A DNA stretch of 46,069 nucleotides from NCBI GenBank assembly GCA_002753465.1, contig PEAF01000011.1, forward strand, positions 1 to 46,069. Reading direction: 5' to 3'. The position numbers and the translations under genes are program-made. The notes beneath the pieces are model-generated. The model searched no databases. It saw only the letters and a list, made by a program, of their open reading frames with translations, and was not told the origin of the DNA. The stretch comes from Candidatus Omnitrophota bacterium. GTDB lineage: Bacteria; Omnitrophota; Gorgyraeia; Zapsychrales; Fredricksoniimonadaceae. Position 1 is the first letter of the stretch, and each line of letters begins with the position of its first letter. Below are positions 7,300 through 44,453 of the stretch, one piece after another.

Positions 7300-7677
7300 A
7301 TGAAGATCGTTAAGACAGATAAAGCGCCGGCAGCCGTTGGTCCCTATAGTCAGGCTGTCATTACCGGTAATTTGGTTTTCTGCGCCGGGCAGATCCCTCT
7401 GGACCCGGCCACAGGCAATGTTGTTGCTGGCGGCATTGAAGAGCAGACGCGCCGCGTGTGCGAGAATATCAAAGGCGTTCTCTCAGGCGCCGGCACATCG
7501 ATCGACAAGGTCGTCAAAGCTTCAGTTTTCCTGAAAGACATGAATGATTTTGCCGGCATGAACAAGATTTACGCCGAGTATTTTATGAAAGATTTTCCGG
7601 CGCGTTCGACGCTTCAGGTCGCGCGTATCCCGAAAGATTGTTTGGTTGAGATCGAAGTTGTTGCTGAATTGAATTAG
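7300..7677 (+). CDS. ridA: RidA/YjgF/YER057c family enamine/imine deaminase
   Basis: 'MKIVKTDKAPAAVGPYSQAV', 'GQIPLDPATGNVV', 'ARSTLQVARIPKDCLVEIEVVA'; SD ggag at 7291. Confidence 0.95.
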   Translation: MKIVKTDKAPAAVGPYSQAVITGNLVFCAGQIPLDPATGNVVAGGIEEQTRRVCENIKGVLSGAGTSIDKVVKASVFLKDMNDFAGMNKIYAEYFMKDFPARSTLQVARIPKDCLVEIEVVAELN

Positions 7678-7690
7678 TATTATCAAATAT

Positions 7691-7862
7691 AGGTTTGGGA
7701 AATCCTGTGCGCTGCCTTTAGGCGGCTAGTCAGGAACGGTCCCGCCGCTGTAGCCCCGTTTTCGGGGGAGTCAGAAAGCCAGCCTGTATTTAAGATCATC
7801 GCCACAGCGCACGACTGTGTTCGTTGATGCATCGTATTAAGGCCCAAGCACGAGGGTGCAAT
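7691..7862 (+). ncRNA. Cobalamin riboswitch (compact)
   Basis: 'GGGAAATCCTGTGCGC...GGTCCCGCCGCTGTAGCC...GAGTCAGAAAGCCAGCCTG' conserved core upstream of btuFCDB; GTGCGC (7707-7712) complementary to GCGCAC (7807-7812) in the loop of a downstream hairpin. Confidence 0.9.
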
Positions 7863-9749: not shown

Positions 9750-10527
9750 GGTCAAGGCTTTAACGTGCGGGTACGGGGGCCGTGCCGTGGTATCAGGGGT
9801 TGATTTGGATGTTAAAAGCGGGGAATTTTTTGGTCTTATTGGCCCGAACGGATCGGGTAAGACGACACTTTTGAGGGCGCTCTCACGCATCATTAAGCCC
9901 ATGGCCGGGGATATTGCGCTTAACGGTAAAGCGTTGGGGAAGATGGCGTGGCGGGAAATAGCGCGCGATGTGGCCGTGGTGTCCCAGCAAGTGCCGGTGG
10001 CCGCTATGACAGTTGAAGAATTTGTGATGCTGGGAAGGCTTCCGCATTTTGCGCAAATGCAGTTTTTAGAGTCAGCTCATGATCGTAACATCACCCGTGA
10101 TTGCATGGCAACGACGGGTACGTTGTGTTTCAAAGATAAACCCCTGCAGCATCTTAGCGGCGGTGAAAGGCAGTTGGTGCAGATCACACGCGCGCTGGTG
10201 CAGCAGCCGAAAATGCTGCTTTTGGATGAGCCGACGGCGCATTTGGACATCACCCATCAGGTTGCGGTCATGGGGCTTTTAAAGCGTCTTGTGCGCGAGT
10301 TGGATGTGACGGTCTTAATGGTCCTGCATGACCTTAATTTAGCCAGTGAATATTGCGATCGCCTGGCGCTGGTAAGTGAGGGGCGTATTTATAAAACAGG
10401 GACCCCGCAGGAAGTGATGGAGCGCGGCATTATAGAAGCAGTTTACAAGACTACGATTACTGTCGGGAAAAGTCCTGTTTCATCCAAGCCGTATATTTTT
10501 ATTAATACATCAAAGGAGGAGAAATGA
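9742..10527 (+). CDS. btuD: Cobalamin ABC transporter ATPase BtuD
   Basis: Walker A 'GPNGSGKTT', signature 'LSGGERQLV', Walker B 'MLLLDEPTAHLD'. Start at 9742 overlaps btuC end. Confidence 0.93.
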   Translation: MLKVKALTCGYGGRAVVSGVDLDVKSGEFFGLIGPNGSGKTTLLRALSRIIKPMAGDIALNGKALGKMAWREIARDVAVVSQQVPVAAMTVEEFVMLGRLPHFAQMQFLESAHDRNITRDCMATTGTLCFKDKPLQHLSGGERQLVQITRALVQQPKMLLLDEPTAHLDITHQVAVMGLLKRLVRELDVTVLMVLHDLNLASEYCDRLALVSEGRIYKTGTPQEVMERGIIEAVYKTTITVGKSPVSSKPYIFINTSKEEK

Positions 10528-12530
10528 AGAGGTTAGTACTTATTATCGGGTTAATGTTCGCGGGTGTCGGCTCGCTCTGGGCCCAGGAAGTCAAGGATCT
10601 TGGGCAGATCGTGGTAACGCCGGACCGCTACGTTTCGGATGCGTCCGAGGCTGGTTCATACGTGACGGTCATTACGCGCCGTGATATTGCCGCATCAGGG
10701 GCGTTCACGCTGCCAGATCTTTTGGTCAGACAGGCGGGTGTTCATGTGTATAACAAAGGAAGTCAAAAGAGTTCCGTCATAGATATGGGCGGGTACAATG
10801 ATGCCGCGGTGAGCAATGTGCTGGTCATGCAAAACGGCCGCAGGCTTAACCCTTCAGATTCATCGGGGCCTGACCTAGCACAGATTCCGCTGGATACGAT
10901 CGAACGGATCGAGATCGTGCGCGGTGGGGCTTCTGTGCTTTACGGTGATAATGCGGTGGGCGGCGTGGTTAATATCATTACCCGCAGCGGGCACGAAGGG
11001 GTGAATGGCTCCATTGCAACCGAGCTCGGAAGTTATGATCGTAAGAAGCTGAGTGCTGATGTGAGTGCCGGGAAAAAGGACCTTACGGTGTATGTGTTTG
11101 GCGGGACGGAGCGGACCAACGGGTATCGTACGAACAATGCTTTTCAGGCCTCTGATGGGCAGGTTCGTTTGAACTGGAAAGCGGTGGAACTTTTGTCGCT
11201 GGGGATCGAGGCTGGCTGGCATGAGGATGATTATGGTTTGCCTAGCGGTTTGCATGCGGATCAGCTTGGCTCACTTGGGCGGCGCGGGAGCAGGACCCCG
11301 GATGATTTCGGGGATACACGCGACCGTTATTTACGTTTAACGTCAGAGTGGAAACCTTTTGACGCCAGCGGTGAATTCGGCACTTTGTCTTTGGATTACA
11401 CGCATCGTGACCGGGATACGTATGGTTTTTATTATTACACCAGCCCTGAGTGGGAGTTCTCCAAGACGGGGATACTGAATGATTCGGCCAATTTGAAATA
11501 CAGGATCGAGAAAGATATTGCCGGCAGGAAAGCAGGTTTGACCACAGGGGTTGATGTTGTCAGTGACCGCAGCCATGTGATCGACCAGTATAATCCATGG
11601 TCTTTGCAGGATGTGAATATCGCTAAAAAAGAGCAGGGTTATTATTTTCTGGCCCAGTACGATGTTCTAGATAAGTTGACAGCTGATATTGGCGGGCGCC
11701 ACGAGAAAGCGGACTATACGTTCATCAGCCATGACATGGGGACTAAGGACAAAACGGCTCCGACAGCGAATGTATGGGGCGGCGGTTTGAAGTATGATTA
11801 TGCGCAAGGGTCCAATGTGTTTATTCGTGCGGATGAAACGTTCCGTTTTCTTAATACGGATGAGTATTTCAGCCGTTGGACGGGTCTGAATACGACGCTG
11901 CGTCAACAAACGGGGATCGATTACAGGGCAGGGGTTAAGCATGCCTTCGGTGAAGTTTTTGAGGCAAGGCTGACGCCGTTTATGACATTGAATAAAGAGG
12001 AGATCTTTCTGGATCCAACTGTGAGCCCTGGCAACAACAATAATTACGGGCGTACGCGTCGTTTGGGTGTGGATCTGGGACAGACATTCCATATGGTCCC
12101 TGCCTTGAAAGTGGCTGGATTGAGATCAACGGATATCAATGTGGATTATACGTACTTGGATGCTGAGTTTTCCGGAGGTTCATTTGGTGGCAAACGCTTG
12201 CCTATGACGCCCAGACATCAGGTTTCTGTCGGGATGAATATAGCTGCCAAGTCGGGGTTGTCGCTCAATGTGATGGGGCGTTTTCTGGGGGCTCAGTATG
12301 GGATCAATGATGATGCGAACAGGCGCGCGCCGATCAAAGCACGCGTGATTGCCGATACGCGCTTAGGGTATGCGTTTAATCCAAATTGGGATACGTTCGT
12401 GGGAGTTAATAACGTTTTTGACAAGCGTTACTACGAGTATGTTGCTTTTGGGGCAGGGGCATCGACCAACATTGATTACTATCCCGCCATTGGCCGCAAT
12501 TATGTGGCAGGGATGAAGTATAAGTTTTAA
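10524..12530 (+). CDS. btuB: TonB-dependent receptor, BtuB-like
   Basis: TonB box-like 'LGQIVVTPDRY', plug domain 'IERIEIVRGGASVLYGDNAVGGVVNIITRSG', terminal barrel strand ending in F; in btu operon. Confidence 0.9.
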   Translation: MKRLVLIIGLMFAGVGSLWAQEVKDLGQIVVTPDRYVSDASEAGSYVTVITRRDIAASGAFTLPDLLVRQAGVHVYNKGSQKSSVIDMGGYNDAAVSNVLVMQNGRRLNPSDSSGPDLAQIPLDTIERIEIVRGGASVLYGDNAVGGVVNIITRSGHEGVNGSIATELGSYDRKKLSADVSAGKKDLTVYVFGGTERTNGYRTNNAFQASDGQVRLNWKAVELLSLGIEAGWHEDDYGLPSGLHADQLGSLGRRGSRTPDDFGDTRDRYLRLTSEWKPFDASGEFGTLSLDYTHRDRDTYGFYYYTSPEWEFSKTGILNDSANLKYRIEKDIAGRKAGLTTGVDVVSDRSHVIDQYNPWSLQDVNIAKKEQGYYFLAQYDVLDKLTADIGGRHEKADYTFISHDMGTKDKTAPTANVWGGGLKYDYAQGSNVFIRADETFRFLNTDEYFSRWTGLNTTLRQQTGIDYRAGVKHAFGEVFEARLTPFMTLNKEEIFLDPTVSPGNNNNYGRTRRLGVDLGQTFHMVPALKVAGLRSTDINVDYTYLDAEFSGGSFGGKRLPMTPRHQVSVGMNIAAKSGLSLNVMGRFLGAQYGINDDANRRAPIKARVIADTRLGYAFNPNWDTFVGVNNVFDKRYYEYVAFGAGASTNIDYYPAIGRNYVAGMKYKF

Positions 12531-12544
12531 AGTTTTAGAATCAG

Positions 12545-12599
12545 AATTACGGGGACATGTACCAAATTGCTTTTTAATTGGGTACGTGTCCCCGTAATT
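12545..12599. repeat. 55-bp palindromic intergenic element, copy 1
   Basis: aattacggggacatgtaccaaatt-gctttt-taattgggtacgtgtccccgtaatt; near-perfect inverted repeat. Confidence 0.9.
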
Positions 12600-12775
12600 A
12601 TTCCCCTAAATACTCACACTATCAATCAGTTACAACATTTCAAGATAACGTTACCAGACAGGGTGTCATCTACCCTTGTTTTAGTTATCTTTTTACATAT
12701 ATATTTATACGTGGTGGAGGTCGTTGTGCAGGAAGCGTATTCTATATATAGGTGTGGCCTAAGGGGCGGCCGATT

Positions 12776-15700
12776 ATGCGGAAGATAACATCATTCTTTA
12801 TCCTTATAGCATTTGTCCTGAGTTGTGTGATGCCCCCGCAGGGCTTTGCCCAGTCATTAACAGCTATTGGTTTGATGCCGGCACCTGGTACCCAGGTGAG
12901 TTTGACAGGTTCTTATACGCCTACGCACCTCAAAGGCATGGTGATCAATCCCAATGATCCATTCAAATTCGATTTTATCGTCTACCGTGGTGATGAAAAG
13001 CTTACACCCGAACAGAAACAGACCGAATATCCCAAGTTGATCAAATATTTTCTGGCGTCTTTGTCCGTTCCTGATACAGATCAGTGGGTCAACTTATCGC
13101 CTTACGAAAAAGAGCGGATTATCCCGGATAATTTTGGATTGACGGAGATGGGGCGTGACCTTTTGGCGCAGGATTACCTTCTTAAACAGGTCGCAGCATC
13201 GTTGACCAACCCCGATACAGATCTGGGTAAACAGTTTTGGGATGAAGTTTACGCCAAGTCGTATGAGAAATTTGGAACGACGGATATCCCTACGGATGTG
13301 TTCAATAAAGTTTGGATCACGCCGGATAAAGCTGTTGTCTTTGAAAAGGGGAATGCCGTGGTCATCATCGAGCATCATTTAAAAGTGCAGATGGAGAGCG
13401 ATTATAGGGCTATGCAGATGAACGCGGCCACGACGGCAACAGAACAGGATAATGAAGCGGTAAGGATCTCCAAGCAGGTGATGCGCGAGGTCATTATCCC
13501 GGCGATCGAAAAAGAGGTGAATGAAGGCAAGAGCTTTGCTCCGGTGCGGCAGGTTTATGGCGGCATGCTTTTGGCCACGTGGTATAAACGCGCACTCAGG
13601 GAATCGATTTTGGGCAAGGTTTATGCGGATCAGGGCAAGGTCAAGGGTATTGACCAGGACCCGGCGAATAATCAGCAGATTTATCAGGAATATGTCAAGG
13701 CGTTCAAGGTGGGCGTTTTTAATATGATCAAGGAAGATGTGGACCGCTACTCGCAGGAGATGATCCCGCGCAAGTATTTCTCCGGCGGTCTAAAGAATGA
13801 TTTTGCTCAGGTGTTAGTGATCGACCATACTCAGGCCGGTGAGGTGAAAGCACGAGAGATGATCAGCGATGACGACATCGTTAAGACTGAAATGAAGAAT
13901 TCAGACAGCTCAGCTCAGGACCGTGCCAGGGATTGGGTTACTGGTCAAGACGGCACGCTTATGGAACGATTTTCGAACGAAGGTATGCAGGCGTCGATTG
14001 ATCATGTTTGGAGTAACCCTGTCCTGAAGGAAGATATTTTAAGTATGGCAGGGTTAAAGGAATTGAAGAATCCCAGGATAATGTATGGCGGGCAGGGAAG
14101 CACAAAAGATGTTGCTTTTATTAAAGGGCAGGATGCTGACGGGAAATCGATTTCCATTGCGGTGAGGTTTTATAAATCGAATCATACGCCTTTTAAGAAG
14201 ATCGATGCGTTTGCGCAAGAGGAAGTTGCCGCGAATCTTGAAGACACGACTTCCGTGAAAGTATTCGGGTATCATTCATTTGCAGATTACTACAACAATA
14301 AGGCTATCAATGAGCTGGAGGATACTGTATTTACGGGCGCTGGATATGCAGGATTTTCAGTTGGTCAATATCTTCCATATAAGGTGACCGCATTAGAGAA
14401 CTCAGGGTTAAAGAGCAGTAATGTATATGCAGGGTTAATAGCTACGACTCTTTTAAGGTGGCTATTAAAAGGTGAATTTATGGGTGATCTTAAATTTGAG
14501 AATTTCGGTGTCGATACTGACGGTGCGGTTAAGATCATTGATACAGGGGATATGCATCAGGTGAGTTATGCGGACAGTGTTGTCAATGAACTGATATCAT
14601 TTTTCGAGAAAAAGGGATTATTAACTGATCCTGTTCAGAAGAAAGAGATATTAAAAGGGTTTAATTTGGGGCTGTCAAGGTTTTGGGATTTACAGCCTGA
14701 AAGTTTCCAAAAGTTGATGGACGGCCCTGATGAGCTCAATGCCATCCTTAATATTGAAACTAGTGTTAATAATTATATTAATCCCGGGGATCATGCTCAA
14801 GTTGATGCCGCGATGCAAGGATGGCGGGGGACGCAGAAGAAGTTCGAACGCCGGAAAAACACCGAAGCATATATTATGAGAGCCCTCAAGGCTGCTGGTG
14901 TTGCTGTTGCGGGGGTTGCCATGTATGGGATTATTAATTTGGGTACTTCAGCCGCAGCGCAGAGAAGTTATCCGGTGCCGAACATGCCAACCGTGAAGGT
15001 TGTTAAAGTTTATGATCAGAAAGGCCATGCTACGGCGGTTTCCATTGATGAAGCCAGTCCTGAGAATAATGCTGTTTTGAGTAAAGACCGTGCGATGAAG
15101 TCAACATTAGTGGCTGCCGCGATCTTGTTGGCTACGTTTATGAATGTTTCTTTGGCATCTGCGGCCGGTATTAATACGAAGACTCCTGATTCTCAGGAGT
15201 TGTCGGTAAAGAAAGAAATTACCGCTGATCCGATATTAGTAGAGTTGAATCGACTGCAAAGGGGTGCTGTTAATCCTTTCTTGATCCATAAGCAGGGCAA
15301 AGGATCATCAGGTTTTATGTCGATAAGCTTGGATAAATTAAGAGAAAACCTTAAGAATCCCGACACACTTACTGTGTTTTTTGGTTTAATGATGAAGAAT
15401 GTTTATTCGAGTTTTGAAGTTCCTGAAAGTGTTATGCCTTCTGATATTGTTAAAGAGCTTAAAGGCCTCACGAAGGGACTAACCATTGAAGGATCAAATA
15501 TTTCACCCCTCTTGCAAGAAGCGGTTAAGTTTGACGCACGCGACATTGCCAAGACGGAGGCCGTTAAACTTTATTATGATGCTAATAATGGCAATGAGAT
15601 CGGGGTCTTATTCTTTGATCGTATTTCTTCGGCAGATGTTAAAGAGAACGTGGGTGGTATTGACATGAATGCCGCTAATCTGAACATGCAGATCAAGCGT

Positions 15701-15820
15701 GACGGGGCTGGTGTTCCATTGCCTGTCAGCCAGCAGGATCTTGAGAATATCCGCATTGACGGCCTTGTGCCCGTGATCCTGGATATTAAACCGGCAGCGG
15801 GGATACCGTTATTTAGTTGA
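12776..15820 (+). CDS. Large secreted multidomain protein with central protein-kinase/APH-like signature
   Basis: Signal peptide MRKITSFFILIAFVLSCVMPPQGFAQS; kinase-like 'MYGGQGSTKDVAFIKG..ISIAVRFYK' and 'GDLKFENFGVDTDGAVKIIDTGD'; internal hydrophobic AxA-like segments. ATG 12776 in frame with ORF-track start 12752. Confidence 0.8.
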   Translation: MRKITSFFILIAFVLSCVMPPQGFAQSLTAIGLMPAPGTQVSLTGSYTPTHLKGMVINPNDPFKFDFIVYRGDEKLTPEQKQTEYPKLIKYFLASLSVPDTDQWVNLSPYEKERIIPDNFGLTEMGRDLLAQDYLLKQVAASLTNPDTDLGKQFWDEVYAKSYEKFGTTDIPTDVFNKVWITPDKAVVFEKGNAVVIIEHHLKVQMESDYRAMQMNAATTATEQDNEAVRISKQVMREVIIPAIEKEVNEGKSFAPVRQVYGGMLLATWYKRALRESILGKVYADQGKVKGIDQDPANNQQIYQEYVKAFKVGVFNMIKEDVDRYSQEMIPRKYFSGGLKNDFAQVLVIDHTQAGEVKAREMISDDDIVKTEMKNSDSSAQDRARDWVTGQDGTLMERFSNEGMQASIDHVWSNPVLKEDILSMAGLKELKNPRIMYGGQGSTKDVAFIKGQDADGKSISIAVRFYKSNHTPFKKIDAFAQEEVAANLEDTTSVKVFGYHSFADYYNNKAINELEDTVFTGAGYAGFSVGQYLPYKVTALENSGLKSSNVYAGLIATTLLRWLLKGEFMGDLKFENFGVDTDGAVKIIDTGDMHQVSYADSVVNELISFFEKKGLLTDPVQKKEILKGFNLGLSRFWDLQPESFQKLMDGPDELNAILNIETSVNNYINPGDHAQVDAAMQGWRGTQKKFERRKNTEAYIMRALKAAGVAVAGVAMYGIINLGTSAAAQRSYPVPNMPTVKVVKVYDQKGHATAVSIDEASPENNAVLSKDRAMKSTLVAAAILLATFMNVSLASAAGINTKTPDSQELSVKKEITADPILVELNRLQRGAVNPFLIHKQGKGSSGFMSISLDKLRENLKNPDTLTVFFGLMMKNVYSSFEVPESVMPSDIVKELKGLTKGLTIEGSNISPLLQEAVKFDARDIAKTEAVKLYYDANNGNEIGVLFFDRISSADVKENVGGIDMNAANLNMQIKRDGAGVPLPVSQQDLENIRIDGLVPVILDIKPAAGIPLFS

Positions 15821-15832
15821 TGATTGACATGT

Positions 15833-15887
15833 AATTAAGGGGACACGTACCAAATTAAAAGGTAATTTGGTACGTGTCCCCTTAATT
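15833..15887. repeat. 55-bp palindromic intergenic element, copy 2 (perfect 25-bp arms)
   Basis: aattaaggggacacgtaccaaatta-aaagg-taatttggtacgtgtccccttaatt. Confidence 0.95.
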
Positions 15888-33634: not shown

Positions 33635-33691
33635 TTTTGCGGGGGCATGTTTCAAATTCGTTGGTCGAATTTGGTACGTGTCTCTGTAATT
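33635..33691. repeat. Palindromic intergenic element, copy 3 (decayed)
   Basis: ttttgcgggggcatgtttcaaattcg...cgaatttggtacgtgtctctgtaatt; right arm close to consensus, left arm degenerate. Confidence 0.8.
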
Positions 33692-44394: not shown

Positions 44395-44453
44395 AATTAT
44401 GGGGACACGTACCAAATTCGCTTCACGAATTAATGGTACATGTCCCCATAATT
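44395..44453. repeat. 59-bp palindromic intergenic element, copy 4
   Basis: aattatggggacacgtaccaaattcg...aattaatggtacatgtccccataatt between mreB and mreC. Confidence 0.9.

What the first reader, a model, noticed from the sequence alone, without database searches (positions are those of the whole stretch)
12545..15887. A 3.3-kb single-gene cassette bracketed by two copies of the same 55-bp palindrome
Copies 1 (12545-12599) and 2 (15833-15887) are both exactly 55 bp, share the core GGGGACAYGTACCAAATT, and sit just outside a single large ORF. The left copy starts 14 bp after the btuB stop and the right copy ends 3 bp before the metH stop, so everything between two convergent housekeeping genes is palindrome-gene-palindrome. 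This could be a REP/MITE-bracketed mobile cassette or a recombination-prone accessory slot. Alternatively the palindromes are only terminators for the convergent genes.
Basis: partly seen in the sequence, partly recalled or inferred. Interest (0 to 1): 0.75.

Follow-up and report, generated by a model that had tools for sequence, protein, structure and literature searches.

The report
Stray mobile palindromes beside modular gene
Two copies of a small mobile DNA palindrome happen to flank one gene in an uncultured Omnitrophota bacterium; the flanking is most likely coincidence, but the gene belongs to a large, apparently undescribed family of exported proteins with fixed ends and interchangeable middles.

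Summary
In detail: 55-bp hairpins at 12545-12599 and 15833-15887 bracket one ORF between btuB and metH. The hairpins belong to a repeat (core GGGGACAY-GTACC) with 9 exact copies in the assembly and 48 distinct copies across the order. They match the GGGGWSAS terminal-repeat class of RAYT-like (TIRYT) transposases; a RAYT in a related genus is flanked by inverted GGGGACACGTACCAATT. At least 17 of 48 copies sit in-frame inside genes, and most others lie just after stop codons. The two window copies differ in loop and flank, a pair this close arises by chance in 10-18% of draws, and the btuB-metH slot varies in relatives without any palindrome. Best reading: two independent insertions into 3' gaps around an accessory gene, not a cassette. 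Hairpin pairs do flank toxin-antitoxin or ORF6N genes in three relatives, so a cassette role is not excluded. The bracketed gene is the more interesting part: one of 38 paralogues in this assembly with a constant signal-peptide head and, in many, a constant C-terminal tail, but unrelated payloads. The family is almost confined to one Omnitrophota order and its constant parts match no Pfam or NCBIfam model.

The parts
10524..12530 (+). btuB-like TonB-dependent receptor (last gene of a B12 uptake cluster)
   Evidence: Pfam PF00593/PF07715; TIGR01779 below its cut-off
12545..12599 (.). hairpin element copy 1: AATTAC-GGGGACATGTACC...GGTACGTGTCCCC-GTAATT, C/T mismatch at stem position 8
12673..12712 (+). 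promoter-like motif CCTTGTTTT...TTTATAC shared with paralogues
   Evidence: 13 of 34 family genes in this assembly versus 2 of 63 control genes (motif found post hoc); 9 of 28 hold-out family genes in other genomes versus at most 5 in 200 shuffles
12776..15820 (+). P0001: signal peptide and constant head (about 12776-13792), orphan payload with protein-kinase-like motifs (about 14090-14640), constant C-terminal tail (15632-15814)
   Evidence: no Pfam or NCBIfam hit; kinase reading is by motif, phmmer E 0.4 only
15833..15887 (.). hairpin element copy 2: perfect 25-bp arms, 5-nt loop, between convergent stop codons
15890..19582 (-). metH, cobalamin-dependent methionine synthase
   Evidence: NF007024/TIGR02082 above cut-off
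33668..33685 (-). degenerate half copy of the same element, intergenic
44395..44453 (.). third full hairpin, between mreB and mreC

Best explanation
The two palindromes are independent copies of a short RAYT/TIRYT-type hairpin repeat (two inverted GGGGACAY-GTACC ends around a small loop) that a Y1 (HUH) transposase moves or once moved. They settled in the short 3' gaps after btuB and between the two converging genes. The gene between them is an accessory member of an order-specific family, acquired or kept in a variable slot between btuB and metH, with its own promoter. The bracket is coincidental. Once in place, the hairpins may also block transcription or stabilise mRNA 3' ends. Shown: repeat family, copy number, intragenic and 3'-gap placement, match to the terminal repeats of a RAYT in a related genus, slot variability, gene family. 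Inferred: transposition mechanism, independence of the two insertions, promoter function, any RNA role.
For: Nine exact hairpins in the assembly and 48 distinct ones in the fetched loci of the order; all seven intergenic ones in this assembly lie within about 25 nt after a stop codon, and two are in-frame inside genes. A RAYT in a related genus is flanked by inverted GGGGACACGTACCAATT; RAYTs of two further genera carry GGGGACACCCACC and GGGGACACATACC ends and those genomes contain matching hairpins; the RAYT of this assembly carries GGGTACACGTAC ends. Di Nocera et al. 2013 (PMC3733652) describe GGGGWSAS ends on TIRYT genes and REPs less than 20 bp from convergent 3' ends. btuB and metH abut without ORF or palindrome in G004, G008 and G017; other genes fill the slot in G011, G016 and G005. 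Chance of a pair this close is 0.10-0.18. Loops and flanks of the two copies differ from each other, whereas five other copies in the assembly share nearly one loop.
Against: No RAYT flanked by exactly this core is in the assembly, which is 64% complete, so the cognate enzyme is not shown in this genome. No base-exact empty site was found, because the nearest relatives are too divergent. Hairpin pairs around small modules in G029, G012 and G009 are more than the independent-insertion model predicts for G029 and G009. Three of the nine hairpins lie in this 46-kb contig.
Confidence: 0.7

Rival explanations
1. The hairpin pair is the boundary of a mobile cassette: a RAYT-type transposase, or homologous recombination at the hairpins, moves the DNA between them, as in MITE-flanked or integron-like cassettes.
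For: In G029 two nearly identical hairpins (55-bp direct repeat, 96%), the only two found there, flank a HipB/HipS/HipT-like module. In G012:C132 an 87-bp direct repeat (87%) made of 40 bp of unique flank plus hairpin brackets a BrnT-like/CopG-like pair. In G009 two hairpins flank an ORF6N gene next to a RAYT. MITE-flanked integrons are known (PMC10969869).
Against: In this window the copies share no flank beyond the element and differ in loop; the slot is occupied or empty elsewhere without hairpins; most hairpins are single; other toxin-antitoxin-like genes lie near single hairpins too, so adjacency may be incidental.
Confidence: 0.12
2. The palindromes are bidirectional transcription terminators or mRNA 3'-end elements of btuB, the ORF and metH, kept by selection on RNA structure, with no transposition.
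For: Very stable folds, placement next to stop codons, copy 2 between convergent stops and scored as terminator-like.
Against: 39 of 48 copies keep a stem mismatch, at least 17 of 48 are in-frame inside coding sequence, there is no T-tract after copy 1, and the core is the terminal repeat of a RAYT.
Confidence: 0.13
3. Hairpins and gene family are linked: hairpins are over-represented in and beside head-payload-tail genes because they travel with head modules exchanged by recombination. This is compatible with, not exclusive of, the best explanation.
For: Seven G012 paralogues carry the hairpin at the same codon region of the head while their payloads are unrelated. About 10 of 21 G012 hairpins and 3 of 9 in this assembly are in or beside such genes, which cover roughly 3.5% and 6.5% of the assemblies.
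Against: The G012 cases may be one or two insertions copied by duplication; after collapsing them the excess is modest and was not formally tested. In this window the hairpins are outside the gene.
Confidence: 0.2

Closest known systems
TIRtron/TIRYT terminal repeats with GGGGWSAS motif (Di Nocera et al. 2013, PMC3733652)
   Same: Core GGGGACAC fits the motif; inverted copies flank RAYT-like Y1 transposases in related genera; copies dispersed next to 3' ends, some within genes
   Different: No RAYT flanked by exactly this core in the (incomplete) genome itself; elements here are compact 55-59 bp double-arm hairpins with a conserved C/T mismatch
GTAG-type REPs and REPINs with RAYT
   Same: Short imperfect palindromes, multicopy, 3' intergenic, asymmetric stem, RAYT family enzyme
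   Different: No GTAG foot; few copies (about 10 per genome)
Rickettsia palindromic elements (RPE)
   Same: Tolerated in-frame inside protein genes
   Different: About 150 bp versus 55-59 bp (PMC10969869); sequence relationship not tested; the two window copies are intergenic
Polymorphic toxin/effector proteins with a constant trafficking region (general knowledge)
   Same: Constant export-type end joined to unrelated payloads; many paralogues per genome
   Different: Here both ends are constant in many members, the payload is central and mostly enzyme-like or orphan; no delivery system or activity shown

Membership tests
RAYT/TIRYT-associated palindromic repeat (GGGGWSAS class) | Repeat end carries a GGGGWSAS-like motif | tested here: met
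   GGGGACAC in at least one arm of 47 of 48 hairpins; motif from PMC3733652
RAYT/TIRYT-associated palindromic repeat (GGGGWSAS class) | The same repeat flanks a Y1/RAYT transposase gene as inverted copies | tested here: met
   G005:C115 RAYT (L161 1522-2190) flanked by GGGGACACGTACCAATT at 1432(+) and 2199(-); met in a related genus, not in the window's own assembly
RAYT/TIRYT-associated palindromic repeat (GGGGWSAS class) | Dispersed multicopy with differing presence in relatives | tested here: met
   9 in G000, about 20 in G012, 0-3 in most others
GTAG REP/REPIN | GTAG tetranucleotide at the foot of the hairpin | tested here: not met
   Flanks listed show no consistent GTAG
MITE | Target-site duplication at insertion | tested here: inconclusive
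   None visible at 12545 or 15833; no base-exact empty site available
Composite mobile cassette | Matched flanking copies | tested here: not met
   The two copies differ in loop and flank, 81% identical
Composite mobile cassette | Precise empty site, or the same unit at a second location | tested here: inconclusive
   Relatives' empty slots lack hairpins but are too divergent for base-exact comparison
Integron gene cassette (attC) | Core sites GTTRRRY/RYYYAAC in the palindrome | tested here: not met
   Neither hairpin contains GTT or AAC (sequence)
Intrinsic terminator | GC-rich stem directly followed by a T-tract | tested here: inconclusive
   Copy 2 passes a loose scan with a weak tail, copy 1 does not
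Protein kinase-like fold (payload of P0001) | Lys/Glu/Asp-Asn/Asp-Gly catalytic motifs and matching fold | tested here: inconclusive
   Motif string GDLKFENFGVD...IIDTGD present by eye; no Pfam hit, phmmer E 0.4, single-sequence model pLDDT 43

The most novel reading that the evidence does not exclude
The bracketed gene is one of dozens per genome in an order-specific family of exported proteins built as constant head, exchangeable payload and constant tail (kinase-like, SNF2 helicase, amylase, CofD and others). It would be a delivery chassis for enzymes aimed at host or prey cells, and RAYT-type palindromes that ride in or beside these genes would mark, and perhaps help, the exchange of modules and small cassettes.
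Probability: 0.2. Interest if true: 0.8.

Novelty: new member of a known kind. Interest (0 to 1): 0.45.

Why it matters
The palindromes add a RAYT-type repeat in Omnitrophota, with several in-frame insertions inside genes including metH and menE. The bracketed gene points to a large protein family with fixed ends and swappable middles in a phylum suspected of predatory or parasitic lifestyles. If the head is an export or delivery signal, the family would give a handle on how these uncultured cells act on other cells.

Tried and rejected
Composite transposon with matched ends: rejected as the best reading because loops and flanks differ and relatives' slots lack hairpins. Integron cassette: no GTT/AAC core. 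Pure terminator: conserved mismatch, intragenic copies. Fold search with the head model (pLDDT 71, pTM 0.65): no PDB match better than E 0.48. Single-sequence model of the payload: too poor to use. Payload relatives in 82 other genomes of the order: none. Rfam miRNA hits on the hairpins are chance matches to long hairpins, below gathering scores. A genome-contig scan for the AAATT-loop form gave only two Omnitrophota contigs (records very near the window's genome may be left out). A viral-contig scan returned no answer. Literature searches for a described Omnitrophota head/tail family or for RAYT-flanked toxin-antitoxin cassettes found none; they were few, and the library is open-access only.

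Full report
Observation. The two hairpins are real and at the stated places. Hairpin 1 (12545-12599) lies 14 nt after the btuB stop. Hairpin 2 (15833-15887) lies 12 nt after the stop of the ORF and 2 nt before the metH stop codon. The neighbours are a TonB/BtuB-type receptor and full-length metH. The two copies are not identical: 81% as direct repeats and 90% as inverted repeats, with different loops.

What the palindrome is. The assembly holding the window (2.18 Mb, 64% complete) has 9 exact hairpins of the form GGGGACAYGTACC-loop-GGTACRTGTCCCC. Two named contigs with the same hairpin are Candidatus Omnitrophota. A generic search found hairpins in 16 of 83 genomes of the order. Among 48 distinct hairpins, 39 have the same C/T mismatch at stem position 8. 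The bases just outside the core pair far more often than composition predicts (position 1: 34 of 48 against 13.9 expected, with four pair types), so the arms co-vary. All seven intergenic copies in this assembly lie within about 25 nt after a stop codon. At least 17 of the 48 lie inside long ORFs without breaking the frame: a GT4 glycosyltransferase, metH, menE, menD, a PMT-like protein, and heads of the gene family described below. In menE of one genus three species carry the hairpin in the same short stretch with different loops, and two others carry different palindromes there.

Link to a transposase. The RAYT of this assembly (L026 6868-7542) is flanked by inverted GGGTACACGTAC repeats, a near relative of the core. 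In G005, same family, a RAYT is flanked by inverted GGGGACACGTACCAATT. In G009 and G010 the RAYTs have GGGGACACCCACC and GGGGACACATACC ends, and those genomes contain hairpins with the same cores. The four proteins share the HUH and Tyr regions and are 41-63% identical. Di Nocera et al. 2013 (PMC3733652) described GGGGWSAS terminal repeats of RAYT-like TIRYT genes and REPs within 20 bp of convergent 3' ends. The element therefore fits that known class. It lacks the GTAG foot of classical REPs and the core sites of integron attC.

Is the bracket a cassette? The slot between btuB and metH is variable. The two genes abut in G004, G008 and G017. In G011 a nitroreductase lies between them, in G016 RecQ and a response regulator, in G005 four ORFs. 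None of these has the palindrome. Random placement of 9-12 hairpins in 2.18 Mb gives a pair within 3.3 kb in 10-18% of draws. The window copies share no flank beyond the element. The gene has its own promoter-like motif between hairpin 1 and its start; the motif is found at 13 of 34 family genes against 2 of 63 control genes, and at 9 of 28 hold-out family genes against a shuffled maximum of 5 (the motif was found post hoc and the hold-out is weaker). I conclude that two independent insertions flank an accessory gene.

What keeps the cassette reading alive. In G029 the only two hairpins found are a 96% direct repeat around a HipB/HipS/HipT-like module. In G012:C132 an 87-bp direct repeat, including 40 bp not found at other G012 hairpins, brackets a BrnT-like and a CopG-like gene. 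In G009 two hairpins flank an ORF6N gene beside the RAYT. These are few and lack empty sites, so I give the cassette reading about 0.12 for this window.

The bracketed gene. P0001 has a head of about 340 aa starting with a signal-peptide-like stretch (A1, 48-76% identity to the relatives aligned) and a tail of about 63 aa (A2). Profile searches found 38 head matches in this assembly and 23 in G012; first-look candidate counts reach about 100 in some relatives. Heads start the protein, and tails, where detectable, end within about 15 residues of the stop. Tails occur in 24 of 191 sampled genomes of the phylum, 22 of them in this order. Payloads are unrelated: alpha-amylase, SNF2 helicase, CofD with NTP-transferase and HAD domains, HEAT repeats, and many orphans. 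The P0001 payload has kinase-like motifs and no relative in 82 other genomes of the order. Seven G012 paralogues carry the hairpin at the same codon region of the head, with 50-88% identical heads and unrelated payloads, which tags head-module reshuffling. Omnitrophota include predicted predators and parasites with giant ORFs (PMC10066038), so an exported arsenal is plausible, but no export or activity was tested.

Verdict. The palindromes are a new member of a known kind, and the bracket is probably coincidental. The gene family is the part worth following.

Noticed in passing
window 12776-15820 and 37 further places in the same assembly: Order-restricted family with constant signal-peptide head, constant C-tail in many members and unrelated payloads, often in tandem arrays; constant parts not in Pfam or NCBIfam.
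   Followed up: partly
L140, L142, L143, L146, L212, L215, L216 (G012): Seven paralogues carry the hairpin in-frame at the same codon region of the head while payloads are unrelated: a natural tag for module shuffling.
   Followed up: partly
L206/L217, L218, L207, L219, L220 (menE in one genus): The same short stretch of menE holds the GGGGACAC hairpin with different loops in three species and different palindromes (GTAGGGACAGGT... and GTGACAGGGACT...) in two others, a recurrent in-frame insertion site.
   Followed up: partly
L198 218-1837; L138 2456-3436; L164 647-2170: Hairpin pairs flanking a HipBST-like module, a BrnT-like/CopG-like pair, and an ORF6N gene next to a RAYT.
   Followed up: partly
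L202 2990-3045 (G214): A GGGGACAC hairpin lies in-frame inside metH itself in a related genus.
   Followed up: no
G021:C3 near 116261-116896: Open frame of 44,856 aa reported around a GT4-like match, longer than the 39,678-aa giant ORF cited for Omnitrophota in PMC10066038.
   Followed up: no
window 7672-7830 +: Sub-threshold AdoCbl riboswitch match (35.3 bits, gathering 50) just upstream of the btu cluster.
   Followed up: no
upstream of family genes, e.g. window 12673-12712: Shared promoter-like motif CCTTGTTTT-N-TTTATACTTA, suggesting co-expression of the family.
   Followed up: partly
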